A stretch of 64,000 bases of DNA from an uncultured Cetobacterium sp. (GTDB lineage Bacteria; Fusobacteriota; Fusobacteriia; Fusobacteriales; Fusobacteriaceae). Where the stretch lies: NCBI GenBank assembly GCA_934085975.1, contig CAKOHT010000006.1:1-64000 (forward strand), read 5' to 3'. Below are positions 6,213 to 58,885 of this stretch, piece by piece (within the stretch, counting starts at the first letter, position 1; the number at the start of each line of letters is the position of its first letter). The notes beneath the pieces were generated by a model. It was not told the DNA's origin, did not search any database, and saw only the letters and a list, made by a program, of their open reading frames with translations. The position numbers and the translations under genes were made by a program.

Positions 6213-8970
6213 TCAAATCGTCATCTCCTCTGTACCAATATAAAAATTTTAAAATATCCTCAAAGTAATATACTCCCCCTTCTTTTTGAGAGTATCTAGC
6301 TTTTTTATCCTCAATAAGCTTTAGTAATTTTTCAAAGTTTACATAATTATTATCAAATTTTAAAAAATATTCTCCCTCTTTTTCTATTATCTCCTCAATT
6401 TTCAAATCTTTAGCTAATATCTTTACCTCTAAATACCTCAATAAATTTATTACCTCTTCAGGTAACGCACCAAATCTATCTACCAGCTCCATTTTTATTT
6501 CAAACAATTTGTTTAAATCCCTTGTATCAACCAATCTTCTGTAGATTATTAATCTTTCGTCACCTTCTATATAATCTTTTGGAATATAGGAATCCTCTTT
6601 CAAAATAATTTTTGTTTCAAAATCTTCTTTATAATCCCCTTTTACTCTAGCTACCTCTTCCTGTAAAAGTTTAGTATAAAGGTTATATCCAAAAGTTTCC
6701 AAGGCACCATGCTGCTTATCTCCTAATATCTCACCAGCCCCTCTTATTCTCATATCTTCCAACGAAAGTTTAAAACCCCCTCCAAATTCTCCAATATCTT
6801 TTAAAGTTACCTCCCTCTCTAAAGCTTTTTTACCCAATTTTTTATCTTTATCAACTATTAGATAACAGTAACCTTTTCTTTTTCCTCTTCCTACTCTTCC
6901 ACGAAGTTGATAAACTTGCGAAAGTCCTAATTTATCTAGTCCCTCTATCAAAATAGTATTTGCATTCTCTATATCAATTCCATTTTCTATAATCGTAGTA
7001 CTCAATAAAATGTCAATGTCTCCATCTTGAAATTTTTTTAATTTCTCTTTTATATTTTTAGGTGTCATTTTTCCATGAATATAATCCACAGTTACAAATT
7101 TAGGAAGTATCTTTTTTAAATCATTTAATTTATCTTCTATCCTTTTAACTCTATTGAATATATAGAAAACTTGTCCCTCACGAGCTATCTCTTTCATGAT
7201 AGATTCCCTAATTTCTTCTTTATTGTCACCTATAAATTTTGTTTCTATGGGTGTTCTTCCCTCTGGTGCAGTTTCTATAACAGAAATATCTCTAATACCC
7301 AATAGTGCATAATTTAAAGTTCTAGGGATAGGGGTAGCTGTTAAAGTTAACATATCTACATTATGTTTCATTTTTTTTAATTTTTCTTTATCTTTTACTC
7401 CGAACTTTTGTTCTTCATCAACTACTATAAGCCCTAAATTTTTAAATTTTAAATCTCCTGATAAAACTCTATGAGTCCCAATAACAATATCTACACTCCC
7501 ATTTTCAACTTTCTTTATTATTTCTTTTTGCTCCTTATCTCCACTTAACCTACTTAACAATTCAAGAGTTATCGGGTACTCTTTATACCTTTCCACAAAC
7601 CTATCATAGTGTTGCTGGGCTAGAACTGTTGTTGGAGCTATTATCAAAACCTGCTTTCCATCCATAACACACTTAAAAGCTGCTCTTATAGCAACCTCTG
7701 TTTTTCCATAACCCACATCCCCACAGACAATTCTATCCATGACTTTTGAGGATTCCATATCTCTTTTAACATCTTTTATAGCATTTTTTTGATCTCTTGT
7801 TTCTATATATGGAAATTTTTCTTCAAATTCCTCTTGCCAAACTGTATCTGGTGAAAACTTATAACCTGTATGGAGAGCTCTTCTAGCTTGAATCTCTACA
7901 ATCTCCTTGGCAAATTTAAGCATATCCTCTTCTAACTTTTCTCTTCTTCTTTTAAATCCTCTTCTTCCCAAATTATATAACTCAGGCGTTTTACCAGTTG
8001 AGACTAAAAATCTTTCTATTTTATTTAATCCTTCAATCGGTACAAATAGTCTATCTTCATCAGCATATCTTATAGCCAAGTAATCCTTTCCATCAATCTC
8101 TTGGATTCCTAAATAAATTCCAACACCATAATTTTCATGAATGATATAGTCTCCTTCTCTAATTTGTGAGATATTTTCATATTTTACGCCATCTTTTGCA
8201 CTTAACGACTTTATCTTCTCTGTGTCTCCTTCGCTTTTAATTACATCTATTTTTTGGGAAATATTTTCTATCTTTCCATACAGTTCCCTGATCTCATTCT
8301 CTTCATCTCTTTTTCTAACTATGGCTTCTTCCAACTTATATCTGACTATTTCAGCATTCTCTAAATAAATATCACAATTTCTATTTTTCCTTATCCTCTC
8401 TAAAAGTTCTATAAAATCTATTTTTTCTAAATTATTTTTGTTTATATACATATTTACTCTACTTATTTTTTCAAAACTTTTTTGATCCATAATAGAAAAA
8501 TACGTTATTCTATCAATCTCGTCCCCAAAATACTCCACTCTAATTGGGTGCTCCCCGTTCAAGGGATAAATATCCACAATATCCCCTCTAACTGAAAACT
8601 CCATTCTTTTTTCTACTAAATAATTTTTTTTATATTCATTTTTTTCTAAAAGTTCTATGAGTTCCTTTCTTGTTATCCCCTCTCCTAATGACAGAGTCAA
8701 AATATCACTATTTAAGGAATAATGTGTCAAAATACCTTCTAAAGAGGTTAAAATTATCAATTTTCTATTATTTTTTAAACTTTCTAAAAGCTGATAATTT
8801 ACTCTATAATAGTCATCCTCTTCTTGAATATTTGAAAATTCAATTAAATCAATCTCCTGCTGTTCAACTATGTTTTCAAAATAAATATCTATATTTTTAT
8901 TAGAGGATCCTATATACACCACACTATTTTTATTATCTATTAAAAATTTGGGAATATCTTTTCTGAACAT
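6199..8970 (-). CDS. mfd: Transcription-repair coupling factor
   Basis: A 923-residue SF2 translocase that removes RNA polymerase stalled at lesions and recruits UvrA. Seen in order: a reduced UvrB-like N-terminal part with FSVRGDIVDIYP (about 125-136); the RNA polymerase interaction domain (about 272-330, DYIIHENYGVGIYLGI); Walker A GDVGYGKTE (417-425); the DEEQ box (518-521); TATPIPRT; RGRVGRGKRKGYCYL in the second helicase lobe; then the TRCF C-terminal domain. It is over 200 residues shorter than E. coli Mfd (about 1,150); the shortfall falls in the N-terminal module. First gene of the mfd-to-spoVG series. Confidence 0.95.
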   Translation of the reverse strand: MFRKDIPKFLIDNKNSVVYIGSSNKNIDIYFENIVEQQEIDLIEFSNIQEEDDYYRVNYQLLESLKNNRKLIILTSLEGILTHYSLNSDILTLSLGEGITRKELIELLEKNEYKKNYLVEKRMEFSVRGDIVDIYPLNGEHPIRVEYFGDEIDRITYFSIMDQKSFEKISRVNMYINKNNLEKIDFIELLERIRKNRNCDIYLENAEIVRYKLEEAIVRKRDEENEIRELYGKIENISQKIDVIKSEGDTEKIKSLSAKDGVKYENISQIREGDYIIHENYGVGIYLGIQEIDGKDYLAIRYADEDRLFVPIEGLNKIERFLVSTGKTPELYNLGRRGFKRRREKLEEDMLKFAKEIVEIQARRALHTGYKFSPDTVWQEEFEEKFPYIETRDQKNAIKDVKRDMESSKVMDRIVCGDVGYGKTEVAIRAAFKCVMDGKQVLIIAPTTVLAQQHYDRFVERYKEYPITLELLSRLSGDKEQKEIIKKVENGSVDIVIGTHRVLSGDLKFKNLGLIVVDEEQKFGVKDKEKLKKMKHNVDMLTLTATPIPRTLNYALLGIRDISVIETAPEGRTPIETKFIGDNKEEIRESIMKEIAREGQVFYIFNRVKRIEDKLNDLKKILPKFVTVDYIHGKMTPKNIKEKLKKFQDGDIDILLSTTIIENGIDIENANTILIEGLDKLGLSQVYQLRGRVGRGKRKGYCYLIVDKDKKLGKKALEREVTLKDIGEFGGGFKLSLEDMRIRGAGEILGDKQHGALETFGYNLYTKLLQEEVARVKGDYKEDFETKIILKEDSYIPKDYIEGDERLIIYRRLVDTRDLNKLFEIKMELVDRFGALPEEVINLLRYLEVKILAKDLKIEEIIEKEGEYFLKFDNNYVNFEKLLKLIEDKKARYSQKEGGVYYFEDILKFLYWYRGDDDLNEKI

Positions 8971-38146: not shown

Positions 38147-38166
38147 TGTATATTATCAAAAATAAT
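38147..38166 (+). repeat. Isolated iteron-like sequence
   Basis: TGTATATTATCAAAAATAAT matches the origin iteron (TGTATATTATCAATAATATT) at 18 of 20 positions, in the same orientation, about 5.5 kb from the cluster. It lies just upstream of the sigma-54 activator gene. It may be a satellite initiator site or a coincidence in AT-rich DNA. Confidence 0.45.
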
Positions 38167-38283: not shown

Positions 38284-39333
38284 TCATATAAGCTCTCTCT
38301 TTATCCTATCATTTATACATGATAAAAATTCATAATGAGGAACTTTTAAATGATTTATACTCTCCTCTAAGTCATGAAATATTTCTACCTCATCTCCAAC
38401 CTTCACCGAATCATCTACAAGAATGAATGAGCTATCCATACTGATATGAATTATTTCAAATTTTTTATTATTGATTATAGACATAATACCTTCACTTCTT
38501 TTTGAAAATCCATCTCCGTAACCTAACCGAATTTTTGCTATTTTCTTATATTTTCCTATATTTAAGTTTTCTTTTTTTTCATATCCTATATACTTTAAGT
38601 CACCTATACTTTTTATGTCTAATATTTTACCATCTAATCTAAAAGATCTTTTTATAGATGGAATGTAATATCCTATCTCCTGTAGTCCAAATAAAACTGT
38701 TCCACATCTTATATGAGTACAAAATTTTCCTTCTACTGACATAACTCCTGCACTATTTTGCATATGAACAATCTCAAACCTACCTTTTCCTAATTCTTTT
38801 AATATTTTAGAAAATCTCTCTTCTATTGAAATTAAATCATCATAATCCGCAGCAAATACATGAGTACAAAGACCTTTAAATTTTAAATTTCTATTCTCTA
38901 TCAGCTCTTTTAATTTAAAAAAATCTTTTTCTAAAATTCCATTTCTTCCAAATCCAAAGTCCAACTTTATATGTAACTGTTCCGTTGAAACCCCTTTATC
39001 TAAAAGATTTAAAAGTTCATTAAAACTATTTACCACCATATGAATATTTTCGTTATTTTTTAAAATTTCTAATTCATCTACGGTTTCTAAAATAATAATC
39101 TTTATATCTTTTATTTTTAAACTCAATATCTTTTCGGCTTCGCACTCTCTAGCTACTGCAAAATATTCACATCCATTTTCTGATAAAAATTTAACTATAT
39201 TCTCTATCCCATGACCATAAGCATTGGCTTTCACCACGGCAATTATATCTTTATTTCTGAATTTTTTTAAATAGTGATAGTTATGTAAAATGTTTTCTTT
39301 TGAAACTTTTATTTTAAAATCTTTTAACCCCAT
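38284..39333 (-). CDS. alr: Alanine racemase
   Basis: A 349-residue PLP enzyme of fold type III that makes D-alanine for peptidoglycan. PLP-lysine block DIIAVVKANAYGHGIENIV; the C-terminal beta domain has KIRLGYGDGFSKRS and a catalytic Tyr in this segment. Slightly short for the family (about 360-380). An alternative is another amino-acid racemase of this fold. Confidence 0.9.
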   Translation of the reverse strand: MGLKDFKIKVSKENILHNYHYLKKFRNKDIIAVVKANAYGHGIENIVKFLSENGCEYFAVARECEAEKILSLKIKDIKIIILETVDELEILKNNENIHMVVNSFNELLNLLDKGVSTEQLHIKLDFGFGRNGILEKDFFKLKELIENRNLKFKGLCTHVFAADYDDLISIEERFSKILKELGKGRFEIVHMQNSAGVMSVEGKFCTHIRCGTVLFGLQEIGYYIPSIKRSFRLDGKILDIKSIGDLKYIGYEKKENLNIGKYKKIAKIRLGYGDGFSKRSEGIMSIINNKKFEIIHISMDSSFILVDDSVKVGDEVEIFHDLEESINHLKVPHYEFLSCINDRIKRELI

Positions 39334-41741: not shown

Positions 41742-43592
41742 CTACTCATTAATAACTCTTTCAATATATTTTTTTATTGTATTAAAATAGATTTTTTTTG
41801 ATTTTCTTTTCATAGTCAATAAGAAGTTTACATCAATATTTTCTTCAAGAGAACAAAGTTTGATTGCCTGCTCCTCTATTTTTAATTTTTCATATTCATC
41901 ATATTCATCAAAAACCTTTAAAATATCTACGGATATATCAGTTTCGTCTATCAAATCTTTCAAACTATTTATAACTGGTTTTTTCACTGTTCTTCTCGCT
42001 TGATTAATTTTCTTTTTACTTATCAACCCCTTTTCTTTAACTATATTGTTAAATAAAGTCAAGTTTTGTTTTGAAACATCCTTCTCCTGACTTAAAAGAT
42101 TTTTTAAAACACCATTTATATATTGCACTAAAGTTGTTTTTATATTGGAGTTTAGATTTTTGTATATTATTTTTAAAACCTCAATTAAGACAATTTCTCC
42201 CTCTTCTATAAATATCTTCTTTACTTTAGTATCTGTTCTTTTATCCCAAGACCTCGAAACATATATATTTTTCTTGGCTTTTTGAATATTTTTTATCACT
42301 TCATCAGGATAAATAAACTCATTATTTTTTTCAATCTTTTTTATTGGAGCTTTTTTTACTTCTTTTTTATTCTCCACTTTCATCTTCATTTCTTCTTGAG
42401 AACTTGTCTCAGTGACTTCAACAATTTCGGCTTCCTCTATTTCCTCGGAATTAAAACTAGGTTTCTCAGTATACTGTTCTTTTTCCTTTGAGTAAACAAT
42501 CTCCTTAACTTTATTTGATTTTGAATTCTCTATAAATGATGATACATGGCACTCTCCATCCTTTTTACTATTAAACTTATAAACTATGTAATATGTGTCC
42601 TCATTTTTGTCTTGATACGCCTTATAATACTCCACATAGCCCAGTTCAACCAGCACATCATAAGCTTTTTCAACTCTTTTTAAAACCTGTTTCATTCTAC
42701 AAAGAACATAAGTTTTTGTGTCTCCATTTTTGTTTACTCTTTCAGTTGTTTGTTCTGTTTTTAATGGAATAATTGCTGCAATTGTCCTAAGATTTATCCT
42801 ATCTTCTTGCTTTTCATATCTAATCTTACTAATATATTTATAAATTCTTCCAGCTATAGGATCTTTTGCCAAAATTTCCATCAAAGCTTTGGAGTTATAT
42901 TTTATGTATCTCTTATCACTAATTTTTTTTCGTATATTCTTGTTAAGAGTAACTCTATAATATATTTTTTTACCTTTTTTTAATTTTTGATAAGTTAAAA
43001 GTTTAAACTCTTCATCTTCAAATTTATATTTCCCTAATTTAGTATGATTAGAAACAACAAATTGATATTCTGTATTTTTTAAATTTTTTAATGCCTGTTC
43101 AACTTTCGTATAATAAGTTCTATTCATTTTGTTCCCTAAAAAATGAACTATAAAATCTGAAATTTCAAATTCTATGTACTCATACTCATCATTCAAATCT
43201 TTTTTAGCTTCATAGGTAGAAATTAAATATGTATATATTTTTTCTTCAAAAATTGAGGGTTGAAACACTTTATCTCGTGAGTCTTTAGCTACCAATGTAC
43301 AATACATAGTAACCCCTAAATCTTCGAAAGAATATTGAAAGTTTACTCTTTTATTTTGTTTCTGAGGAGTAAAAAATGGAAAAACAATCATTTCGACAGG
43401 TATATTTATTACATTATCTTTCAAATTTAAAAAATTTCCAGTTTCTTTTATTATAACTTCTCTAATTTCAATATCTGGTAATTGATTTAGTCTTATATCG
43501 ATCTTTGTTATATCTGTTAATAATGATCCTGTAGATGTTATATTAAAATTCTCCACAATATCATCTGTTTCTTTTTTCACCTTCTTTTCCAT
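41742..43592 (-). CDS. Plasmid-type replication initiator protein (RepA/RPA-like), likely origin initiator
   Basis: A 616-residue protein. The N-terminal half (about 25-310) resembles winged-helix plasmid initiators, closest in my reading to replication initiator protein A (RPA): PVEMIVFPFFTPQKQNKRVNFQYSF, then SIFEEKIYTYLIS, and a long Lys-rich region with RIYKYISKIRYEKQEDRINLRTIAAIIP. An acidic, low-complexity linker (about 375-425) leads to a helical C-terminal domain (about 430-616) that I do not recognise. ATG 43592 is chosen because GGAGAGG lies six bases upstream; the upstream ATGs have none. Instead of dnaA, this gene borders the rpmH-side intergenic region that holds six iterons; two iterons lie in its own promoter region, suggesting autoregulation. 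Function is inferred from fold resemblance and position. Confidence 0.75.
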   Translation of the reverse strand: MEKKVKKETDDIVENFNITSTGSLLTDITKIDIRLNQLPDIEIREVIIKETGNFLNLKDNVINIPVEMIVFPFFTPQKQNKRVNFQYSFEDLGVTMYCTLVAKDSRDKVFQPSIFEEKIYTYLISTYEAKKDLNDEYEYIEFEISDFIVHFLGNKMNRTYYTKVEQALKNLKNTEYQFVVSNHTKLGKYKFEDEEFKLLTYQKLKKGKKIYYRVTLNKNIRKKISDKRYIKYNSKALMEILAKDPIAGRIYKYISKIRYEKQEDRINLRTIAAIIPLKTEQTTERVNKNGDTKTYVLCRMKQVLKRVEKAYDVLVELGYVEYYKAYQDKNEDTYYIVYKFNSKKDGECHVSSFIENSKSNKVKEIVYSKEKEQYTEKPSFNSEEIEEAEIVEVTETSSQEEMKMKVENKKEVKKAPIKKIEKNNEFIYPDEVIKNIQKAKKNIYVSRSWDKRTDTKVKKIFIEEGEIVLIEVLKIIYKNLNSNIKTTLVQYINGVLKNLLSQEKDVSKQNLTLFNNIVKEKGLISKKKINQARRTVKKPVINSLKDLIDETDISVDILKVFDEYDEYEKLKIEEQAIKLCSLEENIDVNFLLTMKRKSKKIYFNTIKKYIERVINE

Positions 43593-43626
43593 TAAAAACC
43601 TCTCCATCATTTTATAATACTAAATA

Positions 43627-44110
43627 TGTATATTAACAATAATAAATATATCTAGCGTAATATAATATACCATTTTTTCTGTATATTAACAATAATATTT
43701 TTTTGTTTTTTAATCTTCCCATAAAATGAGTAATCTCTATTTTTATGTAAGTATAAAATGCCTATAAATAAACACTTTATTTTATGTATATCTACAATAA
43801 TATTTTTTCAATCTACTAAACACTTGATTTTTATTGAGTTCTTCTCTTTTTTTAATTATCTCTCTTTAAGTAAAATAAGACTTTCTTTCATGTATATTAT
43901 CAATAATATTTGTTTTTTATATAAAACCATTGACTTAACTAAAGTTCCAAAGAGTAAAAAATTTATAATCCCTTTAAATTTAACACTTTTCTTTGTGTAT
44001 ATTATCAATAATATTCAAAAACCATTGATTTTATTGAGCTTATCTTATTTTTTTAGTCTACATATTCAACAAAATCAACCTTTATAGATTTGTATATCAT
44101 CAATAATATT
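43627..44110 (+). repeat. Six direct iterons, consensus TGTATATYAWCAATAATATT
   Basis: Copies begin at 43627 (last bases diverge), 43680, 43785 (TCTAC variant), 43891, 43996 and 44091. Starts are 53, 105, 106, 105 and 95 bp apart, near whole multiples of 10.5 bp, so all would face the same side of the helix. Between copies a weaker block with TTGAYTT and TTGAG recurs (43824, 43930, 44025), showing that the array derives from a roughly 105-bp tandem unit. Confidence 0.92.
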
Positions 44111-44282
44111 TTTTTTAACATAAACTCTTTAAAATCAATACTCTAAGCTATATATTTTTTGTAACTTAGTCTGTACATATAACATTATACAAAAAACAAA
44201 AAACAACTATAGCATCCCAATTTATCATCCTTAATATTTTTCTTTAAATTTAAGTATTAATTTTTTATTTATCAGAATTTAC

Positions 44283-44311
44283 TTGACAAAACTCAAAATT
44301 TCTTCTAGAAT
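44283..44311 (+). promoter_or_regulatory. Promoter of rpmH-rnpA
   Basis: TTGACA (44283-44288), 17-base spacer, TAGAAT (44306-44311); start point near 44318 and AGGAGGTG just before the rpmH ATG. It lies beyond the last iteron. Confidence 0.75.
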
Positions 44312-44349
44312 ATTTATCTGAAATATAGATATTTTTAGGAGGTGAAAAA

Positions 44350-44484
44350 ATGAAAAGAACTTATCAGCCAAATAACAGAAAATACAAGAAAGATCATGGA
44401 TTTAGAGCTAGAATGGCAACTAAAAACGGAAGAAAAGTATTAAAAAGAAGAAGAGCAAGAGGAAGAAAAGTATTATCAGCATAA
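44350..44484 (+). CDS. rpmH: 50S ribosomal protein L34
   Basis: A 44-residue, highly basic protein: [20 protein letters not shown], then [19 protein letters not shown]. Unmistakable L34. TAGGAGGTGAAAAA supplies a strong ribosome site. Confidence 0.98.
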
Positions 44485-46509: not shown

Positions 46510-47877
46510 ATGTTTGACACTATCGCCGCCATCTCAACTCCAAGAGGAGAAGGTGGAATAGGTATTGTTAGAATGTCAGGAAGCGATTCCTTATGTATAC
46601 TAACAAAAATATTTAAATCTATATCCAAAAAAGAAGTTGGTGAACTTAGAAATTTTAGTATTAACTATGGTCATCTTTATGATGGAGAGGAACTTGTAGA
46701 TGAAGTATTAGTCTCAATAATGAAAGGACCAAATACTTATACAAAAGAGGATATCGTAGAGATTAATTGTCATGGTGGTTTCTTAATCACAGAAAAAATT
46801 TTAGAATTGGTTTTAAAAAATGGAGCTAGAATAGCTGAATTAGGTGAGTTTACAAGAAGAGCTTTTTTGAATGGAAGACTAGATTTAACTCAAGCCGAGG
46901 CTGTTATAGATTTAATACATGGAAAAACTGAAAAAAGTATATCTCTATCTTTAAATCAACTTAGAGGAGATTTAAGAGAACAAATTGATATATTGAAGAA
47001 ACAACTTTTAGATGTATCAGCACACGTCAATGTAGTTTTAGATTATCCTGAAGAGGGAATAGACGATCCATTACCACATGATTTGGTAGATAATTTACAC
47101 AATGTCGTTAATACAACTGATGCTTTAATAAAATCATATAATAAAGGGAAAATGATTAAAGAGGGGATAAAAACAGCTATTGTTGGAAAACCAAATGTTG
47201 GAAAGTCAAGTCTATTGAATTCCGTTTTAAGGGAAGAAAGAGCTATTGTTACTCATGTAGCTGGAACTACTAGAGATGTTATAGAAGAGGTTGTAAACTT
47301 GAATGGAATCCCTTTAGTGCTAGTGGATACTGCTGGAATAAGAAAAACAGATGATTTAGTAGAAAATATAGGTGTAGAAAAATCGAAAGAGCTTATCGAA
47401 AAGGCAGATTTGGTTTTATTTGTGGTTGATAATTCAAGAGAATTAGATGAAGAGGATTTAAGAATTCACGATAGAATTAATGCAGATAAAGTTATTGGTC
47501 TTATAAATAAAACAGATATTGAATCTAAACTGGATGTAACACCATTAACAAAAATAAAAAAGTGGATAAAAATTTCTGCCCTGGAGAAAATAGGAATAGA
47601 TTCAATGGAAAAAGAGATATACAGTTATGTTATTTCTGGTCAAATTGAAGACAGTTCACAAAAATTAGTTATTACCAATGTTAGACACAAGTCAGCATTG
47701 GAAAAAACTAAACAGGCGGTAGAGAATATATTTGAAACAATAGAGATGGGATTACCAATGGATTTAATTGCTGTAGATTTGAAAGAGGCTTTGGATTCAT
47801 TGTCAGAGGTAACGGGAGAGATTAGTAATGAAGATCTTTTAGATCATATCTTTAGTAATTTCTGTGTAGGAAAATAA
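46510..47877 (+). CDS. mnmE: tRNA-modifying GTPase MnmE
   Basis: A 455-residue GTPase that, with MnmG, makes 5-carboxymethylaminomethyl-uridine at wobble position 34. N-terminal folate-binding domain ([23 protein letters not shown]), G1 [12 protein letters not shown] at about 222-233, NKTD as G4, and C-terminal FCVGK with its catalytic Cys. ATG 46510 is used because AGGGGTGAG precedes it; the GTG at 46501 is part of that ribosome site. Confidence 0.96.
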
Positions 47878-47920: not shown

Positions 47921-47963
47921 TAATTTATTTATGTATATGAACAAAAATAAAAAGGAGAAGTAT

Positions 47964-51480: not shown

Positions 51481-52626
51481 ATGGGAGAAAATATTTACTT
51501 TAAAAGAGAAGTTTTTGAAATAAGAGAATTTAGTGAAACAAAGTCCAGTAAAGAGGACATTTTAGAGTTTTTAAATGAATTGATATTTTATAGTTTGAAG
51601 GAAAATGTTTCAGATATACATATTGAATCGAAAGAAAGTGGTATTAAAATAAGGATTCGTATAGATGGAATATTAAAAAATTATCAAGAGTTAAGTAAAA
51701 ATTTTGGATTAAAACTATTGACCAAATTAAAATTGATGAGTGAACTTGATATTGGAGAAAAAAGATTGCCTCAAGATGGTAGATTTAAAGCGCAATATAA
51801 AAATGAAAAAATTGATTTTAGAGTTTCGTTGATTCCAACTATATTTGGCGAGAGGTGTGTTTTAAGAATATTAAAAAATAACATATCAGAAGTTTCTTTA
51901 GAAAATTTGGGATTTACAAATGAAAATTTAATAAGATTAAAAGAGCTTTTGAATAGAAAAAATGGATTGTTGTTATTTTGTGGTCCAACAGGAAGTGGTA
52001 AAACAACAACTCTTTATTCAATAGTAAACTATTTAAACAATGAGAAAATGAACATAATTACAATAGAAGACCCAATAGAATATCAGTTTCCAAATATTAA
52101 TCAAATTCAGTGTAAAAGTGAGATTGGTTTAGATTTTTCCATGATATTAAGGAGTGTCTTAAGACAAGACCCAGATGTTATTTTGGTTGGTGAGATAAGA
52201 GATAAAGAGACAGCAGAAATAGCATTGATGGCTTCTTTGACAGGTCATCTGGTTATAACTACTCTTCATACGAAGGACGCCATGTCAGCTATAGACAGAT
52301 TAATAAATTTTGGAGTCGATAGATTTATCATTGCAACTGCTATAAATGCTATTGAAAGTCAAAGATTAGTTAGAAAAGTTTGTAAAATCTGTGGAGGTAA
52401 AATAGAAAAAAATTGTTGCAATGATGGTTTTAAAGGTAGAGAAATTGTAGAAGAGATAATATTTTTTGATAAGGAAATCAGAGATATAATTTTAAATAAA
52501 AGTATAAAAGATTTAGAATTTTATTTAAAGACAAAAGAGTTTAAAAATCTTTTAAATAATGGTTTCACAAAAGTTGCAATTGGAATTACAACAAAAGATG
52601 AGGTTTTGAGAGAGTGCTTAATATGA
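51481..52626 (+). CDS. gspE: Type II secretion/type IV pilus assembly ATPase (GspE/PilB family)
   Basis: A 381-residue assembly ATPase. N2-like domain with SDIHIESKESGIKIRIRIDG; Walker A GPTGSGKTT (168-176); Asp box ITIEDPIEYQ; Walker B VILVGEIRDKETAEIALMASLTGHLVITTLHT; and a cysteine cluster (CKICGG, then NCC) for zinc. It lacks the N1 domain and is about 120-180 residues shorter than typical GspE/PilB. The 3' end overlaps the next gene (ATGA). Confidence 0.9.
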   Translation: MGENIYFKREVFEIREFSETKSSKEDILEFLNELIFYSLKENVSDIHIESKESGIKIRIRIDGILKNYQELSKNFGLKLLTKLKLMSELDIGEKRLPQDGRFKAQYKNEKIDFRVSLIPTIFGERCVLRILKNNISEVSLENLGFTNENLIRLKELLNRKNGLLLFCGPTGSGKTTTLYSIVNYLNNEKMNIITIEDPIEYQFPNINQIQCKSEIGLDFSMILRSVLRQDPDVILVGEIRDKETAEIALMASLTGHLVITTLHTKDAMSAIDRLINFGVDRFIIATAINAIESQRLVRKVCKICGGKIEKNCCNDGFKGREIVEEIIFFDKEIRDIILNKSIKDLEFYLKTKEFKNLLNNGFTKVAIGITTKDEVLRECLI

Positions 52627-53778
52627 GGCTATATAGATGCCTTATTTTGGATGAAAAAAGAAATAAATTGGAAGATATATACCTAGAAAAAAATAAAAAG
52701 GCTTTTTTAAACAAACTATTTAAAGAGGAGAGGAAATTAATAAAAATTTTGGAAGTGCAATTCGAAAGAAAAATTAGGGAAAAAGAGTTAGAAGAAATGT
52801 ATTTTAAAATAGGAAGATTGTTGAACGCAGGACTTTCTCTAAAAAAAATCTATAGAATTTCAAAAAAGTAGTTCTAAAAATTTAAGTTTAAAGTTTAAAA
52901 TTTTTAATCTTTATAAAAAGTTGGAAAAAGGAGAGGATATATATGAAATTTTAAGAGATGAAGATTTGATAAAAGAAAGAGAGCTTTTAATTATTTATGT
53001 TTCAGAAAGTGTAGGAAAAATAGGGGAGGGTTTTCTTAAAGTTGCATATTTAAAACAAAAAAAAGAAAAACTGAAAAATGAACTAAAGATAGCTCTATCA
53101 TATCCTATATTTATTTTATTCATATCAACAATAATAATAATTTTAATTTTTTATTTTATTGTACCTAATTTTCAAATATTGTATGAAATAGATAAAGATA
53201 AATTACCATTTTTAACAAGAGGTATTCTAAATATTCAAGATATTTTAAAAAAATACCCATATATACTAATTATAGCTACCTGTATAATTTCTTTTTCCAT
53301 AAAATTTTTTAATTTGAAAAAACAATTACAAAAGATATCTATTGTAAAAAAATTTTTATTAGAAAAATATATAATAAATATTTTAGAAAATTTATCTTTA
53401 CTGTTAGAATCAGGAATTTCTATTGATAAAGGAATAGACATTATTTTAGAAAATTTAGATAACGGATATTTAAAAAACAGGATGTTTATATTAAAAAGTA
53501 TAAAGAGAGGAGAGTTACTTTCAGAATGTTTTAAAAAACTTAATATACTATCTTTAGAAGAAATTGATATGATTAAAGTTGGGGAGGAAAGTGGAACGAT
53601 TGAAATGGTTTTAAGAGAGATTTCTCTGGTGAGGGATGAAGAGCTAAATAAAAGGATAAAGATAGTTTTAAAGCTATCTGAACCTATTTTATTATTGATT
53701 GTAGGAATATTAATAAGTACTTTTGTTATTGGTCTATATTTACCTATATTAAATATGAGTGATATTTTTGAAATTTAG
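52623..53778 (+). pseudogene. gspF: GspF/PilC-type inner-membrane protein, split by a frameshift in an A6 run
   Basis: The first frame (ATG 52623, overlapping the gspE stop) encodes RLYRCLILDEKRNK and LLNAGLSLKKIYRIS, then stops at 52869-52871. The frame one base ahead is open from the A6 run (52862-52867) through QKSSSKNLSL and onward to 53778, carrying two GspF-type helical regions (ALSYPIFILFISTIIIILIF and LILLIVGILISTFVIGLYLPI). Removing one A joins both into one protein of about 384 residues, normal for GspF. The cause may be a real mutation, phase-variable or slippage-corrected expression, or a sequencing error in the homopolymer. A separate downstream protein from TTG 52921 is less likely. 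Confidence 0.85.
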
Positions 53779-53786
53779 GAGGGGTT

Positions 53787-54233
53787 ATGAAAAATAAAAA
53801 AAGAGCGGGATTTAGTGTGATTGAAATAGTATTAGTTCTGGGTGTAATAGGAATTTTAAGTAGTTTTATAGCTCCTAAAGTCAGAGATTATTTAGCCATT
53901 GCAAAAGATTCAAAAGCGATAAACACACTTCAAAGTTTGAGAATAGCTAATGAGACATACTATTTAGAAAATGGTAATTACCCAAATTCAAAGGACAATA
54001 GTATAGGGGATGTTTTAGTAGAACTATCGAAGTATGTGGGAGATAAATTTGAGTTGATAGAAAATGAATTACTTATAGATATCGGTGGAAGTAAGGAGAG
54101 CACAAATACTAAAGAAATAAAATATGGTGGAAAAGTGAAAGTAGATTTTAATAGCAGTAAGGAGTTTATATTGGTGCCTTATGGAGAAACTTTCGATTTT
54201 AATATAAGGGGAGATGAATGGTCAAAATTATAG
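53787..54233 (+). CDS. Major pseudopilin-like protein (GspG/PilE type)
   Basis: A 148-residue prepilin. Leader MKNKKRAG, then FSVIEIVLVLGVIGILSSFIAPKVRDYL, with Glu at +5 and a hydrophobic helix; then AKDSKAINTLQSLRIANETYYLENGNYPNS, typical of GspG/pilin heads. No cysteine pair. The best candidate for the main pilus or pseudopilus subunit. GGAGG precedes the ATG. Confidence 0.85.
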   Translation: MKNKKRAGFSVIEIVLVLGVIGILSSFIAPKVRDYLAIAKDSKAINTLQSLRIANETYYLENGNYPNSKDNSIGDVLVELSKYVGDKFELIENELLIDIGGSKESTNTKEIKYGGKVKVDFNSSKEFILVPYGETFDFNIRGDEWSKL

Positions 54234-54679
54234 TGTATTTGCTTATAATAGCAGTCCTTTTAGAGATAGTGGTGAGGGATATAAGAGAGAAAATAATTTT
54301 GAACAAAAGTAATTTAATCCTTCTTTTTTTAGGAATAATTCTAGGATTTTTGGAGGAAAATTTACAGGAAAGAGTTGTAGGTGGTGCATTGTATGCTTTG
54401 CCATTTATACTGATATATGGGTATGGAAGTGATATTTTCAACAAAGAATGTATGGGAATGGGAGATATAAAATTGGTTGTAAGTTTGGGATTTCTTTTAA
54501 AATTTGGGTCATTTTTTGATATTTTACTATTTATGAATATAAGTTTTATTAGCTCTTTAATCTATCTAAGTGGAAAATATATTTTTTTTAAAAAATTGGA
54601 TAGAGAGGTAGCATTTGGACCATTTTTGGTTTTATCATATTTTTTTATTATAGTCAAGGAGAGCTATGGACAATGGTAG
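54218..54679 (+). CDS. Prepilin peptidase (A24 family, minimal form)
   Basis: A 153-residue membrane aspartic protease. Catalytic Asp residues are in VRDIREKIILN and GMGDIKL (the GxGD motif). The N-terminal cytoplasmic methylation domain of full-length PilD/GspO is missing, as in TadV/ComC-short types. It overlaps the pseudopilin gene by 16 bases and the next gene by 14. Confidence 0.88.
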   Translation: MVKIIVYLLIIAVLLEIVVRDIREKIILNKSNLILLFLGIILGFLEENLQERVVGGALYALPFILIYGYGSDIFNKECMGMGDIKLVVSLGFLLKFGSFFDILLFMNISFISSLIYLSGKYIFFKKLDREVAFGPFLVLSYFFIIVKESYGQW

Positions 54680-55001
54680 AAAGGGAACAACATATCTGGA
54701 AGTTCTAGCAAGTTTAATAATACTTTTAGTGCTTTTAAATCCATTATTTTTTTCTTTAATCCATTTGAAAAGAGGATTTAATAGATTAAATGAGTTTAAT
54801 AATTTAGAAAATGAGATTGAAAAAATAAGAGCATTTTATAAAAATCCATTGAATACAAATGATTATATCTCTTTAAATGAAGAATACACAATTGATATAA
54901 AGAGAAATCGAATTTTTGGAGAAATCTATGAATTAGAGATAAAAATAGAGAAAAATATGTTGAAAAGAGAGAGTAAATTATATATATATAAACAAAAATA
55001 A
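54666..55001 (+). CDS. Minor pseudopilin (GspI-like)
   Basis: A 111-residue prepilin: leader MDNGRKG, then TTYLEVLASLIILLVLLNPLFF, with Glu at +5. The short globular part (about 40-111) is charged and unmatched. Overlaps the peptidase gene. Confidence 0.78.
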   Translation: MDNGRKGTTYLEVLASLIILLVLLNPLFFSLIHLKRGFNRLNEFNNLENEIEKIRAFYKNPLNTNDYISLNEEYTIDIKRNRIFGEIYELEIKIEKNMLKRESKLYIYKQK

Positions 55002-55506
55002 AGGTTTTTCTATAACAGAGATGTTATCTACCTTAATAGTGATTACAATTGTATTTCAAGTTTTATTTTATTATTTAAAATACGCAAATATTGAAAGAAA
55101 GTTAGAAGTAAATAGATTCCGCTTTAATAAAGATATGAGGCTAATATTAGAGGGAATAAATATTTCAATATACGAGTCATTGGAATATAAAATATATAAT
55201 CTATCTAGAATAGGAATCTCTATTGATTACTCTACCCCTTCTTTGAATAGTGGAAATACACTTATAATTGAAAAATATATACCGGGAGAGGACTCATTTA
55301 CAGATATAGAAATATATTTTTGTGAAGGGAGTAGTACAACCTCTTTAATAGGAAAAAGAAAAAAGAAAAATAGTATAAGCGTGGAGACAGGCACCAGAGA
55401 AACTATTATAAGAAATTCCAAAGTAAATTTCAAATTAGAAGACTATGGGGTGTCAATGGAGGGATATTACTTAAATGAGGAGTTTAGAAAAAACTTTAAA
55501 AAATAG
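54982..55506 (+). CDS. Minor pseudopilin (GspJ-like), apparent ATA start
   Basis: The first ATG (55021) would begin inside the leader. The same frame upstream reads NKNKG, then FSITEMLSTLIVITIVFQVLF: a class III leader with Glu at +5. There is no ATG, GTG or TTG between the upstream stop (54961) and this leader. ATA 54982, eight bases after GAGAGAG, or ATA 54988, are the only plausible starts. About 174 residues. A single change (ATA from ATG) or a rare AUA start would explain it; an ATG-55021 product would lack the peptidase site. Confidence 0.7.
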   Translation: MYINKNKGFSITEMLSTLIVITIVFQVLFYYLKYANIERKLEVNRFRFNKDMRLILEGINISIYESLEYKIYNLSRIGISIDYSTPSLNSGNTLIIEKYIPGEDSFTDIEIYFCEGSSTTSLIGKRKKKNSISVETGTRETIIRNSKVNFKLEDYGVSMEGYYLNEEFRKNFKK

Positions 55507-56029
55507 TGGGTACATTCTTCCAACTGTTTTATTGATTGTGTCTATTCTAGTATGGTTATGTTCTATAAGTTTATTGAATTATAAAAATGAAATTGACAAT
55601 TTTTCTGTTTTAAAGTCTGCTAATGATGGTTATTGGATAACGGAAAATCTTTCTACATTGGCAGAGTATGAGGTATTTAAGGGAAATATTTCAATTGAAA
55701 ATGGAGATTATAAAGATATAATCGAGTATTTTGAAGATAAGAATTTGGTTTGGATTGATGGTGAGGAAACATCTAGAAGTGGCTATAAAAGAGTTACAGT
55801 TAAGCAAAACGAAAAGATTGTAGAAAATAGATTAGTGTTAATTCCATATACCAAAAATATACTTGAGATAAAACTAATTAAAACTATAGATATAGAAAAT
55901 AATCAGATAGAGATTAGAGCTATTTTGTTTTATGAGTATCTTTCAGGAGAGTCAGATTTTTTCAAGAGCTATAAAAGAGAGATAAAGGGAGTCGAGGCTA
56001 TATTAAAAAATGAAAATATTAGAGATTAG
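55475..56029 (+). CDS. Minor pseudopilin-like membrane protein (GspK/PilX position)
   Basis: A 184-residue protein. N-terminus MRSLEKTLKNSG, then YILPTVLLIVSILVWLCSISLL: a leader-like helix without Glu at +5, as in GspK. A soluble domain follows (about 40-184), with no clear match. The start overlaps the previous gene by 32 bases and the end overlaps the next by 20. Confidence 0.7.
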   Translation: MRSLEKTLKNSGYILPTVLLIVSILVWLCSISLLNYKNEIDNFSVLKSANDGYWITENLSTLAEYEVFKGNISIENGDYKDIIEYFEDKNLVWIDGEETSRSGYKRVTVKQNEKIVENRLVLIPYTKNILEIKLIKTIDIENNQIEIRAILFYEYLSGESDFFKSYKREIKGVEAILKNENIRD

Positions 56030-56702
56030 TGACAGAGGAATAAAAATATTGGAAGATGGCGAGATAATTAATCAAGGACTATTTCAAGATGAAAAAGATA
56101 TCCCAAGGGAGATTGATGAGCTTTTAGCTATATATGAAGTTTCTGATGAGGTAGTTCTAAAAACAAAAATCACTTTAGATGAGGAAGTTATTTTTCAAAT
56201 AAAGGAGATAATTATTAAGAAGGGGTGGATATTAAAGGAATCTAACACGGTAAGCAAAAAAGTTAAGATAGTATTTTTAACGATAATAGCAATCGAATTT
56301 ATTTTAGGATTAGCTATCTATTTAAAAGTTCATGAAGTAGATCGAGAAAATATAGCATTAAAAAAAGAAACTTTAAGTTACAAAAAAAGTTTAAAGGAGT
56401 TGGATAGTGAATTATCTGAAAATCATTTGGAGAGTAATGAAGAGTTAGAATTTAAGAGAACTGAAATAGGAGATAATTTAGTTTTTTTATCAAAAGCGTG
56501 TAAAAAATCTGGTATTTATTTGGAAAAGATAGAGTTTCTAAAAAATAAAATAATATTAAATGGCAGTGGAAAAAGTATAGATAACATATTTAGTTTAAAA
56601 AAAATTATATCAATGGATAGAAAAATTATTGAATCAAAATTTGATTTCATAAAAAAAGAGGGGGAGATTCTATATTTTTTACTGGAATTAGAGATAGATT
56701 AA
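56010..56702 (+). CDS. GspL/PilN-like assembly protein
   Basis: A 230-residue bitopic protein. A cytoplasmic N-part (1-84, MKILEISDRGIKILEDGEII) resembles a shortened PilM/GspL head; one helix (about 87-109, VFLTIIAIEFILGLAIYL); a coiled coil (about 112-150); and a C-terminal ferredoxin-like part (about 160-230). Layout and place before a PilO-like gene suggest the inner-membrane platform. Sequence match is weak. Confidence 0.6.
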   Translation: MKILEISDRGIKILEDGEIINQGLFQDEKDIPREIDELLAIYEVSDEVVLKTKITLDEEVIFQIKEIIIKKGWILKESNTVSKKVKIVFLTIIAIEFILGLAIYLKVHEVDRENIALKKETLSYKKSLKELDSELSENHLESNEELEFKRTEIGDNLVFLSKACKKSGIYLEKIEFLKNKIILNGSGKSIDNIFSLKKIISMDRKIIESKFDFIKKEGEILYFLLELEID

Positions 56703-57328
56703 AAAATTTCAACTTAAAAATTAAAGTTATACTAACAGTAATAAATTTTTCAATAATATATTTTTTATTAATTAAACCAGCAATAATTCTAAAAAATAAA
56801 TTTGATGTGAGGACAAAATTAGAATTAGAGATTAAAAAATTAAGAGAACTTAAAATAATAAAACAGGGAATATTGAAAAGAAACAATGAGGAGATAAGCA
56901 GTTTACTTTCGAGACAAGATGAGTTATTGGAGAAGAAAAAAAAGTTAGTTTTTAATAGTGAATATGAGGCTTTTGAGTTTATTGATGAAACTTCACGTGA
57001 AAATAACTTAATAATTGAGGTAATTGGTAGAGAAGTAAAAGTAGTAAAAAATTTGGACAATATAGAGAGCACTTTTTTTTATCATGGTATTGGCAAAGAG
57101 ATAGATATCTATAATTTTATATCACAGATAGAAAAAGAGAAGAGGTATATAACATTAAAAAGAGAATCGGTAACGATAGAGATAGATGGCAATATTTTAG
57201 ATTTAAAGATAAATCTTATGTATATATTCAATAATAAAAAAGAAGATTTGAATTTGGATAACTATGATGATGGAATGTTTGAAAAAAATAGATCTAGAGG
57301 GATTGGTAAAAAGAGGAGGACAATTTAA
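56672..57328 (+). CDS. PilO/GspM-like assembly protein, apparent ATA start
   Basis: The frame carries a short N-part (FFTGIRDRLKNFNLK), a membrane helix (VILTVINFSIIYFLLIKP), a coiled coil and a C-terminal ferredoxin-like domain, the PilO pattern. GTG 56807 would remove the helix, and no ATG/GTG/TTG exists upstream of it. ATA 56672 lies five bases after GGGGGAG, an excellent ribosome site within the end of the previous gene; ATT 56687 is the other choice. About 218 residues. Confidence 0.6.
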   Translation: MFFTGIRDRLKNFNLKIKVILTVINFSIIYFLLIKPAIILKNKFDVRTKLELEIKKLRELKIIKQGILKRNNEEISSLLSRQDELLEKKKKLVFNSEYEAFEFIDETSRENNLIIEVIGREVKVVKNLDNIESTFFYHGIGKEIDIYNFISQIEKEKRYITLKRESVTIEIDGNILDLKINLMYIFNNKKEDLNLDNYDDGMFEKNRSRGIGKKRRTI

Positions 57329-58885
57329 GTGAAATACAAAATTTTTATGTTGTTTATTTGGATGTATCTAACTAATTTCTCGATGGAGACATATCCAAAG
57401 GAGTTAGATTTAAAAGATGTTCCCATTGTAGATGTATTTGCTCATCTATCAAAATATTCCAAATATACAATAATTGGTGATAGTTATGTGAAGGATATAG
57501 CGGTTGATGGATATTTTAAGAAGGGAACTCCTATAGAGGAAATCTTAGGTGTAATGGAAGCGACATATGGGTTAACTAAAATAATAAATGGAAGAACATT
57601 GATATTTCGTGGAAGAAAATCGGAAGATAAGGATATGCTTGTAGGAAAGGTATTTGATAAAAATACAAATAAAGAGTTAAAAGGAATAAAAATAATTTTA
57701 AAAAGAAAAGAAACTATTGAGGCTCATTCAGGAACATATGGTGAATATTTAATAGATAGCATTGTAAAAGGTACCTATTTTATTTCAATTTTATCTGATG
57801 ATTACGTATATAGCGGTGATTTTCTAGAGATAAAAGATGGAGTAAATAAATTTGATTTTTATGTAGAAAGAAAAAATTTTAATTTTCAAAAAAATATACC
57901 TCAAGAAAGAGAACAAAAAAATAAAAAAGATGATATAATAGAAAATATTTTATTGGAAAATTTAAATCATGAAGAGATTGAAAAAATAATAAAAGAAACT
58001 TTTGACGATAAGTTAAAAGTTTCAATTAGTTCTGGAAATAATTCAATAATACTTTTTGGGAAAGGGCATACGGTTTATACTGCGAGGGATTTAATAAAAA
58101 AATTGGATAAAAGAAAAAAGCAAGTTAGAGTTACTGCAGAGATAATTGATGTGAAAGAAAACCTTTTTGAAGAGCTTGGATTCAACTGGGCTTATGACAC
58201 ACAAGGAAGATTGACTAATAAAAGTAGTGGAATTTATTTGGAGACACTTATTTCTGGAACCGTTGATGGTTTAGGTGAGGTGATGGGAAGTTCTGTAAGT
58301 TTTATCAGTAAATTTAATAGTGGTAAAGATGTCCTAGATTTGACTTTAACTCTACTAGAAACAACACAAGATTTGACTATAAATGCTTTACCATCAATAA
58401 TATTGCTAAATGGTGAAACCGGAATTTTAAAAATGACAGAGGAAGTTATTGTTGGACAAGATAAAGAGGAGAATACAAATAATGATACGGTAACATACAC
58501 ACCAATATTCAAAGAGGCTGGAATTATTTTAAAAGTTTTACCATATATAAAAGAGGACAATAGTGTGTACTTAGATTTGAATTTAGAGGCAAGTGATTTT
58601 AAATTGAAGAAATCTTTGAAACCAAGTGATACAAACTCTGGAACATTCAATGCGGATGGAGGTTCTAAAATATCTAGAAATTTGCAAACAAGAGTTAGAT
58701 TAAAAAATAATGATGTAATTTTAATAGGTGGTTTAAAAAGAAAAATAGATCAAAAGATAAACAGTAAAGTTCCGATTTTAAGTGAAATTCCAGCTGTAGG
58801 AATTTTATTTAAAAGTAAGTCAAGTAGATTAGAACACACAGATTTATATATAAAATTAAAAGCTGAAGTAATAGAGGAGATTTAG
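57329..58885 (+). CDS. Secretin (GspD/PilQ family) with inserted carboxypeptidase-regulatory-like domain
   Basis: A 518-residue outer-membrane secretin. Signal-like N-terminus (1-18); an STN-type domain (about 25-96, LDLKDVPIVDVFAHLSKYSKYTI); a beta-sandwich like carboxypeptidase D regulatory domains (about 103-180, LVGKVFDKNTNKELKGIKI); an N1-like domain (about 203-268); and the secretin core with VRVTAEIIDVKENLFEELGFNW and VPILSEIPAVGILFKSKSS. Start GTG 57329, nine bases after AGGAGG. The sandwich is not usual in GspD. It shows this envelope has an outer membrane. Confidence 0.88.
   Translation: MKYKIFMLFIWMYLTNFSMETYPKELDLKDVPIVDVFAHLSKYSKYTIIGDSYVKDIAVDGYFKKGTPIEEILGVMEATYGLTKIINGRTLIFRGRKSEDKDMLVGKVFDKNTNKELKGIKIILKRKETIEAHSGTYGEYLIDSIVKGTYFISILSDDYVYSGDFLEIKDGVNKFDFYVERKNFNFQKNIPQEREQKNKKDDIIENILLENLNHEEIEKIIKETFDDKLKVSISSGNNSIILFGKGHTVYTARDLIKKLDKRKKQVRVTAEIIDVKENLFEELGFNWAYDTQGRLTNKSSGIYLETLISGTVDGLGEVMGSSVSFISKFNSGKDVLDLTLTLLETTQDLTINALPSIILLNGETGILKMTEEVIVGQDKEENTNNDTVTYTPIFKEAGIILKVLPYIKEDNSVYLDLNLEASDFKLKKSLKPSDTNSGTFNADGGSKISRNLQTRVRLKNNDVILIGGLKRKIDQKINSKVPILSEIPAVGILFKSKSSRLEHTDLYIKLKAEVIEEI

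What the first reader, a model, noticed from the sequence alone, without database searches (positions are those of the whole stretch)
41742..44349. Chromosomal origin with a plasmid-type initiator and iterons in place of dnaA
The gene next to the rpmH-rnpA-yidD-yidC-jag-mnmE-mnmG block is not dnaA but a 616-residue protein resembling winged-helix plasmid initiators (RPA type). The 757-base gap between it and rpmH holds six direct 20-bp repeats, and gene direction and strand composition flip at this point. Together these suggest that this chromosome starts replication through a Rep/iteron system, perhaps after an ancient plasmid-origin takeover. The C-terminal 190 residues of the protein are unrecognised.
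Basis: partly seen in the sequence, partly recalled or inferred. Interest (0 to 1): 0.93.

Follow-up and report, generated by a model that had tools for sequence, protein, structure and literature searches.

The report
Plasmid-type origin runs a bacterial chromosome
In Cetobacterium and its relatives, the chromosomal slot where almost every bacterium keeps the replication-starter gene dnaA holds a plasmid-type starter gene beside a row of repeated sequences, no dnaA was found in the relatives' genomes that carry it there, and the chromosome therefore likely starts copying itself with machinery probably captured from a plasmid long ago.

Summary
A 616-residue protein with a predicted two-winged-helix fold (Pfam RPA; best structural matches RctB, RepE and Pi) is encoded divergently from rpmH. 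Between the two genes are six same-strand iterons, and GC skew flips there. In two complete relatives the sampled skew minimum lies at this locus.

Across 98 Fusobacteriota genomes DnaA and RPA are almost mutually exclusive: 35 have DnaA only, 59 RPA only, 1 both (Haliovirga abyssi, RPA on its plasmid) and 3 neither (contigs that break near the origin). In relatives RPA occupies the dnaA slot, rpmH<-ori->RPA-recF-dciA-gyrB.

New here: (1) the iteron is conserved family-wide, spacings often near 105 bp; (2) ACA triplets every 7-8 nt lie between iterons and rpmH, are shared with plasmid-type origins and are missing from DnaA-type sister origins, so they are a candidate DNA-unwinding element; (3) in complete genomes, exact iteron copies outside the core cluster within 100 kb of it; (4) a predicted clamp-binding motif sits in the C-terminal linker.

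Best reading: an ancient in-place replacement of DnaA-oriC by an RPA-plasmid origin. My searches found no paper reporting it. Initiation itself, DNA binding and unwinding are inferred, not shown.

The parts
41742..43592 (-). RPA-type initiator gene, 616 codons plus stop, in the chromosomal slot that dnaA occupies in sister lineages
42558..43409 (-). two winged-helix domains (residues about 62-345), predicted iteron-binding part
41745..42320 (-). C-terminal helical region (residues 425-616), conserved, no clear known fold
42051..42068 (-). QNLTLF, residues 509-514: predicted sliding-clamp-binding motif in a low-confidence linker
   Evidence: strict form in 33 of 46 chromosomal RPAs, strict form or NL.LF core in 43 of 46; clamp binding untested
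43627..43644 (+). iteron 1
43680..43697 (+). iteron 2 (overlaps the -35 of a promoter-like site for the RPA gene)
43785..43802 (+). iteron 3
43891..43908 (+). iteron 4
43996..44013 (+). iteron 5
44091..44108 (+). iteron 6
44175..44209 (+). ACA array: five ACA triplets at 7-nt steps, the only chain of 4 or more in the 64-kb window; predicted unwinding element / single-strand site
43664..43692 (-). promoter-like site TTGTTA-17-TATATT (TG before -10) for the RPA gene, its -35 inside iteron 2; predicted autorepression
   Evidence: consensus match only; 10 found where shuffles give 8.4; stretch largely conserved in 8 aligned Cetobacterium
44283..44311 (+). promoter-like site TTGACA-17-TAGAAT for rpmH
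44350..44484 (+). rpmH, first gene of the rightward rpmH-rnpA-yidD-yidC-jag-mnmE-mnmG block
57219..57236 (+). exact extra iteron copy 13.6 kb from the origin; same offset (13.64 and 13.65 kb) in two other Cetobacterium-group genomes, G019 and G022
38147..38164 (+). extra iteron-like site, 1 mismatch
38466..38483 (-). extra iteron-like site, 1 mismatch
46594..46611 (+). extra iteron-like site inside mnmE, 1 mismatch
47932..47949 (+). extra iteron-like site at the start of mnmG, 1 mismatch
8433..8450 (-). extra iteron-like site, 1 mismatch

Best explanation
The gap at 43593-44349 is likely the chromosome's replication origin, and the RPA-type protein encoded next to it is predicted to be the initiator that took the place of DnaA in an ancestor of this bacterial family. 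Likely mechanism: RPA monomers bind the six same-strand iterons through two winged-helix domains (inferred from fold and repeats) and build a nucleoprotein complex on repeats that lie about 5, 9 or 10 helical turns apart. They melt the AT-rich stretch next to iteron 6 and hold one strand through the ACA-heptad array, much as RctB uses ATCA repeats in its own unwinding element (inferred). The C-terminal region and its predicted clamp motif, with the retained DciA, bring in helicase and clamp (inferred). RPA bound to iteron 2 would repress its own promoter (inferred). Extra iterons within about 100 kb would titrate RPA or pair with the origin and so limit re-initiation (inferred). History: an RPA plasmid origin replaced dnaA and its boxes in place, leaving the rpmH and recF-dciA-gyrB neighbours intact (gene order and distribution are shown; direction and mechanism are inferred).
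For: Distribution in 98 Fusobacteriota genomes: DnaA C-domain in 36 of 98, the same 36 with a near-full-length DnaA at 336 bits or more (32 over the curated cut-off); RPA profile in 60 of 98; both in 1 (G063, matching Haliovirga abyssi, RPA on plasmid pHIC), neither in 3 whose contigs break near rpmH. Slot: RPA divergent from rpmH in the window and in 41 of 41 genomes where both were held; dnaA divergent from rpmH in 18 of 18 DnaA genomes where both were held; RPA-recF(-like)-dciA-gyrB in five relatives. Skew: no grid origin scores better than the RPA locus in G033 (0 of 192) or G032 (0 of 177). Iterons: 209 forward against 7 reverse sites in 35 loci. ACA array: mean chain 4.00, shuffles 1.22, opposite strand 1.06; also at 5 of 6 plasmid-type origins, never above 2 at 16 of 16 DnaA-type origins. 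Fold. Tree: the 46 chromosomal rows fall on one side of one branch. DciA kept in 85 of 98, 58 of 62 in the RPA block.
Against: No replication, binding or unwinding data exist here; everything is sequence and prediction. The window's own genome is not held. G015, listed inside the RPA block, has DnaA and no RPA; its MnmE is only 47% identical where five others are 66-76%, which suggests misassignment but does not prove it. Of the 60 RPA genomes, G053 and G057 show only fragments at contig ends and G061 only plasmid-type paralogues. L054, L055, L057 and L074 carry 3, 2, 1 and 1 DnaA-box-like 9-mers. L069, L077 and L078 show almost no ACA array; the 124-kb Ilyobacter plasmid lacks it too; L011, L070 and the truncated L078 lack the clamp motif. 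Helical phasing is only suggestive: R 0.64 at 10.5 bp but 0.66 at 12 bp, on non-independent spacings. Promoter-like sites are no more frequent than in shuffles. Skew resolution in G033 is about 100 kb. The tree is a quick one with long plasmid-type branches and no outgroup.
Confidence: 0.88

Rival explanations
1. A divergent DnaA still exists elsewhere in these genomes and starts replication; RPA at rpmH is a bystander from an integrated plasmid.
Against: The DnaA C-domain profile finds nothing in any RPA genome but G063, while it rings in 10 of 14 control genomes. RPA is conserved at the skew switch and in the dnaA slot.
Confidence: 0.04
2. The chromosome starts without a dedicated initiator, from several sites or by recombination, as in some cyanobacteria that lost dnaA; RPA is a leftover.
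For: Loss of dnaA with multi-origin replication is reported in free-living cyanobacteria (PMC7198777, abstract and passages).
Against: A sharp skew switch at the locus here and at the same locus in two complete relatives; iterons, ACA array and RPA are conserved across the family.
Confidence: 0.04
3. RPA is mainly a local regulator or origin-domain organiser that binds iteron-like sites, while an unknown protein opens the origin.
For: Exact iteron copies cluster within 100 kb of the locus in complete genomes, for example 16 of 21 outside the core in G032. Spo0J-type ParB (166 bits or more) is absent from RPA genomes except the plasmid carrier G063.
Against: The predicted fold is the iteron-initiator fold, best match RctB; relatives sit at plasmid record starts as the presumed Rep; the origins share an ACA array that resembles the repeats of unwinding elements. 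ParB is also missing in DnaA genomes such as G069-G071, G073-G075, G078 and G080, so its loss is not tied to RPA.
Confidence: 0.04

Closest known systems
RctB / ori2 of Vibrio cholerae chromosome 2
   Different: RctB runs a secondary chromosome in cells whose main chromosome uses DnaA. Here the main chromosome bears the Rep gene and no DnaA was found in relatives. About 10% sequence identity; different iteron and DUE motifs.
RepE (mini-F), Pi (R6K), TrfA (RK2) iteron plasmid initiators
   Different: Plasmid-borne; classical iterons lie about two turns apart and often need host DnaA (recalled), here mostly about 10 turns with no DnaA; long C-terminal extension.
RPA relatives on Fusobacteriota plasmids: Haliovirga abyssi pHIC, Ilyobacter polytropus 961,624-bp and 124,226-bp replicons
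   Same: Homologous RPA gene at the record start; ACA array in the same orientation relative to RPA in pHIC and the 961-kb replicon.
   Different: Different repeat families upstream; pHIC has parA-parB next to the gene; no strict clamp motif; they fall outside the chromosomal group.
DnaA-oriC
   Same: Same chromosomal slot: initiator gene divergent from rpmH, recF-dciA-gyrB behind it in several RPA relatives as in the classical replication operon (PMC5109545 passage).
   Different: Unrelated initiator without AAA+ domain; no DnaA boxes in 31 of 35 RPA loci, 3-12 in 15 of 16 DnaA loci.
Free-living cyanobacteria without dnaA (PMC7198777)
   Same: Free-living bacteria whose genomes encode no dnaA (abstract).
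   Different: There the dnaA-lacking species replicate from multiple origins and the passages I saw name no replacement; here a Rep-type gene sits at a single skew origin.

Membership tests
Pfam RPA (PF10134) | Profile score over the curated cut-off | tested here: met
   30.2 against 27 bits, residues 69-270 of the 616-aa form; 22 of 37 aligned members match at E 0.1 or better
Two-winged-helix iteron initiators (Rep_3-like: RepE, Pi, RctB) | Two tandem winged-helix domains | tested here: met
   Predicted model and PDB comparison; no solved structure
Two-winged-helix iteron initiators (Rep_3-like: RepE, Pi, RctB) | Direct-repeat iterons next to the gene | tested here: met
   Six in the window; 209 forward against 7 reverse sites in 35 loci
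Two-winged-helix iteron initiators (Rep_3-like: RepE, Pi, RctB) | Binds iterons and opens the adjacent AT-rich element | not testable with these tools
   Needs protein and DNA; a candidate element (ACA array) was found
Two-winged-helix iteron initiators (Rep_3-like: RepE, Pi, RctB) | Works together with host DnaA (optional: need for DnaA depends on the host, PMC4980987 passage) | tested here: not met
   No DnaA in the 59 RPA-only genomes; no DnaA box in the window gap. Not a strict membership feature
DnaA-oriC | AAA+ initiator with DnaA C-terminal DNA-binding domain | tested here: not met
   Pfam and NCBIfam show no such domain in the protein; genome scans
DnaA-oriC | Cluster of DnaA boxes | tested here: not met
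   None with up to 1 mismatch in the gap
Secondary chromosome / chromid | Plasmid-type initiator on a replicon other than the main chromosome | tested here: not met
   The locus carries the rpmH-rnpA-yidC-mnmEG core and, in relatives, recF-dciA-gyrB; in the I. polytropus-sized genome it is on the largest replicon
Sliding-clamp binders (clamp-binding motif) | Q-x-L-x-L-F type peptide in a flexible region that contacts DnaN | tested here: inconclusive
   Motif present and conserved in a low-confidence region; pattern recalled, binding untested

The most novel reading that the evidence does not exclude
One ancestral plasmid capture abolished DnaA in the family Fusobacteriaceae, Fusobacterium included, and RPA now does two jobs: it opens the origin through long-spaced iterons and an ACA-heptad single-strand code, and, through iteron copies scattered within 100 kb, it also counts or organises the origin region, work that DnaA regulators and ParB do elsewhere. 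In Ilyobacter, chromosome II runs on a sister RPA as well, making a cell in which both chromosomes use plasmid-type initiators.
Probability: 0.3. Interest if true: 0.97.

Novelty: new variant of a known kind. Interest (0 to 1): 0.93.

Why it matters
DnaA is treated as the near-universal bacterial initiator and a drug target. A whole family of free-living and host-associated bacteria, Fusobacterium among them (the F. vincentii record has the locus), that swapped DnaA for a plasmid-type initiator in the same chromosomal slot would show that the master initiator is replaceable and that chromid-style origins can take over a main chromosome. It would also mean that initiation control in these bacteria has to be worked out afresh. 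It gives a testable origin with a defined protein, iterons, a candidate unwinding element and scattered sites. It affects annotation too: some RPA proteins are named DnaA in databases, and a 2.1-Mb record with this locus is deposited as a plasmid.

Tried and rejected

Literature: the ten searches (all that were allowed) showed, in the listings I saw, no paper that reports absence of DnaA or an RPA/iteron chromosomal origin in Fusobacteriaceae. Listings were capped, and the library lacks most subscription journals and, it states, bioRxiv preprints. PMC1924603 (passages) calls the gene at the putative F. [quoted passage not shown] that may be this gene, which I could not check. PMC5109545 (passages) places dciA in the replication operon of Fusobacteria among others. 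PMC7198777 was seen as abstract and passages. PMC4070872, PMC4980987, PMC12153356, PMC10797057, PMC10316083, PMC3035301 and PMC6284228 were seen as passages only. PMC12371093 was seen only in search listings.

Rows left out of counts: the iteron and ACA counts use 35 loci; near-duplicates (L038, L040, L043-L045, L048, L049, L051, L058, L062, L066, L085) were dropped, and G022, G035, G047-G049 were read separately for the ACA array (chains 5, 4, 3, 3, 3), as was the F. vincentii record (chain 2). Of the genomes, G006 (1 core site, 1 at about 6 kb) and G021 (12 sites, all at its duplicated core) were left out of the table.
Full report
What is there. The window comes from a Cetobacterium: the closest database proteins are 99-100% identical, one of them named Cetobacterium sp., as are many at 94%. 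The 616-residue gene at 41742-43592 (minus), the 757-bp gap and the rightward rpmH-rnpA-yidD-yidC-jag-mnmE-mnmG block are as described. Genes and GC skew change direction at the gap. Six exact TGTATAYNNNCAATAATA repeats lie in it on one strand; with one mismatch allowed the window has 12 sites where shuffles average 0.05. No DnaA box with up to one mismatch lies in the gap.

Distribution. In 14 genomes that hold close relatives, no DnaA passes the cut-off. Over 98 Fusobacteriota genomes, the DnaA C-domain occurs in 36, the same 36 that have DnaA at 336 bits or more. The RPA profile occurs in 60. One genome has both: G063, whose second replicon has the length of Haliovirga abyssi pHIC (297,551 bp), with the RPA gene at its start followed by parA and parB. 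Three have neither (G045, G050, G087); their contigs start 1.5-2.7 kb upstream of mnmE, whereas the window's initiator starts 2.9 kb upstream. So 35 are DnaA only and 59 RPA only. Among the 59, G053 and G057 hold only fragments at contig ends and G061 only plasmid-type paralogues. G015 (0.8 Mb), listed in the RPA block, has DnaA and no RPA; its MnmE is 47% identical to the window's against 66-76% in the five other genomes with a full-length match, so I take it as probably misassigned. That the block equals the family Fusobacteriaceae is inferred from the names of L001-L014 and the order of the list; the tool gives no kinship.

Slot. RPA is divergent from rpmH in the window and in 41 of 41 genomes where both genes lay on held DNA, and in the F. 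vincentii record. In sister genomes dnaA is divergent from rpmH in 18 of 18 cases where both were held, G015 included; five further DnaA stretches held no rpmH. In L009 (Propionigenium maris), L008, L014, L012 and G032 the RPA gene is followed by recF (three by NCBIfam; recF-like in L012 and, under the Pfam cut-off, in G032), dciA and gyrB; gyrA follows in L009 and L014. DciA, the helicase operator, is kept in 85 of 98 genomes, 58 of 62 in the RPA block. So the initiator was exchanged while its neighbours stayed. In most Cetobacterium loci HPr-ptsI now lies downstream.

Skew in complete relatives. Twenty 8-kb stretches each from G033 and G032 were scored: no other origin position on a 20-kb grid beats the RPA locus (0 of 192 and 0 of 177 better); signs fit equal replichores in 16 of 20 and 17 of 20 stretches. 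The sign change is bracketed to 12 kb in G032 and 100 kb in G033.

Origin anatomy across the family. In 35 loci (window plus 34 relatives) there are 209 forward and 7 reverse iterons with up to 2 mismatches. The commonest spacing is 105 bp (30 of 143 spacings of 130 bp or less), then 104 and 106. The circular statistic at 10.5 bp is 0.64 (0.43 on the 36 distinct values) but as high at 12 bp, and the loci are related, so helical phasing is suggestive only. Beyond the last iteron lies an array of ACA triplets every 7-8 nt on the rpmH-sense strand. Mean longest chain is 4.00, against 1.22 in dinucleotide shuffles and 1.06 on the other strand; 24 of 35 loci have 4 or more and 32 of 35 have 3 or more; ACA is the strongest of 60 trinucleotides tested; the signal is strong at steps of 6-7 and 7-8, weak at 8-9 and near shuffle level elsewhere. 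In the window it is the only chain of 4 or more on either strand. In eight aligned Cetobacterium-group gaps it is part of one of the most conserved blocks. Plasmid-type RPA origins have it too, in the same orientation relative to RPA, at 5 of 6 (three of the six are on named plasmid replicons, one on a 1.15-Mb contig, two on contigs of unknown kind; the 124-kb Ilyobacter plasmid is the miss), although their upstream repeats differ. DnaA-type origins do not: 16 of 16 have a chain of 2, and 15 of 16 have 3-12 DnaA boxes, while 31 of 35 RPA loci have none. Short tandem repeats bound as single strand are reported for RctB (ATCA) and suggested for RK2 (GGTT) (PMC10316083 passages; PMC10797057 passages). 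I therefore propose the ACA array as the unwinding element shared by the RPA family.

Scattered iterons. Exact motif copies outside the 1-kb core lie within 100 kb of the locus in 16 of 21 (G032), 13 of 24 (G033), 13 of 17 (G034), 10 of 18 (G035), 6 of 7 (G027), 4 of 4 (G047), 1 of 1 (G019) and 1 of 1 (G022) cases; in the first four chance would give about one each. The first four were searched with a slightly wider pattern (Y for C at one position) than the rest. The reversed pattern gives 0-1 per genome; DnaA-bearing G063, G070 and G080 have 1, 0 and 0. Offsets are shared between species, for example 13.6 kb in the window, G019 and G022. Titration, origin pairing or domain organisation are possible roles; E. 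coli DnaA titration is a parallel (PMC12371093, search listing only).

History. In a quick tree of 76 rows all 46 chromosomal RPAs lie on one side of one branch, away from the 7 plasmid-type rows; 'plasmid-type' there is my label, and four of the 7 lie on contigs not named as plasmids. That DnaA is ancestral is inferred from the sister lineages and from bacteria at large. An I. polytropus-sized genome (G047, replicon lengths as in PMC3035301) has RPA at the start of its main chromosome and paralogues at the start of the 961-kb replicon, which that paper calls chromosome II, and of the plasmid.

What is shown and what is inferred. Shown: gene, repeats, skew switch, slot, distribution, fold prediction, ACA array, scattered sites. 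Inferred: that RPA initiates replication here, that it binds the iterons and the ACA strand, autorepression, clamp recruitment, titration, and the capture event. The marker-frequency, binding and mini-origin tests listed would decide.

Noticed in passing
L149 (NZ_CP084075.1, 93680-101533): A 2,108,235-bp circular record deposited as Fusobacterium vincentii SB055 plasmid pSB055A carries the RPA-rpmH-rnpA-yidD-yidC-jag-mnmE locus, so it looks like the chromosome filed as a plasmid.
   Followed up: partly
L085 (G021:C6), also G021:C4: Two copies of the origin face each other: an intact RPA with iterons and, beside it, a decayed RPA copy with inverted iterons; may be a real duplication or an assembly artefact.
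   Followed up: no
L082 and L083 (G047:C2, G047:C3): In the Ilyobacter-sized genome all three replicons carry an RPA paralogue, each plasmid-type one with its own upstream repeats.
   Followed up: partly
98 Fusobacteriota genomes: Spo0J-type ParB (166 bits or more) occurs in 14 of 98: 13 of the G063-G098 group and G050; RPA genomes other than G063 lack it, as do several DnaA genomes.
   Followed up: no
P0106, P0126, P0139, P0141: Databases name several RPA proteins chromosomal replication initiator DnaA; one sits in a record called Candidatus Gracilibacteria, possibly misbinned.
   Followed up: no
window 44172-44191: TGTACATATAACATTATACA at the start of the ACA array reads as an inverted pair of iteron half-sites (TGTAYA / TRTACA), a possible operator-like site.
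   Followed up: partly
window 51481-58885: Rightward run with a GspE/PilB-like ATPase ORF (51481) and a secretin-like ORF (57329) close to the origin, read by eye from the ORF translations only.
   Followed up: no
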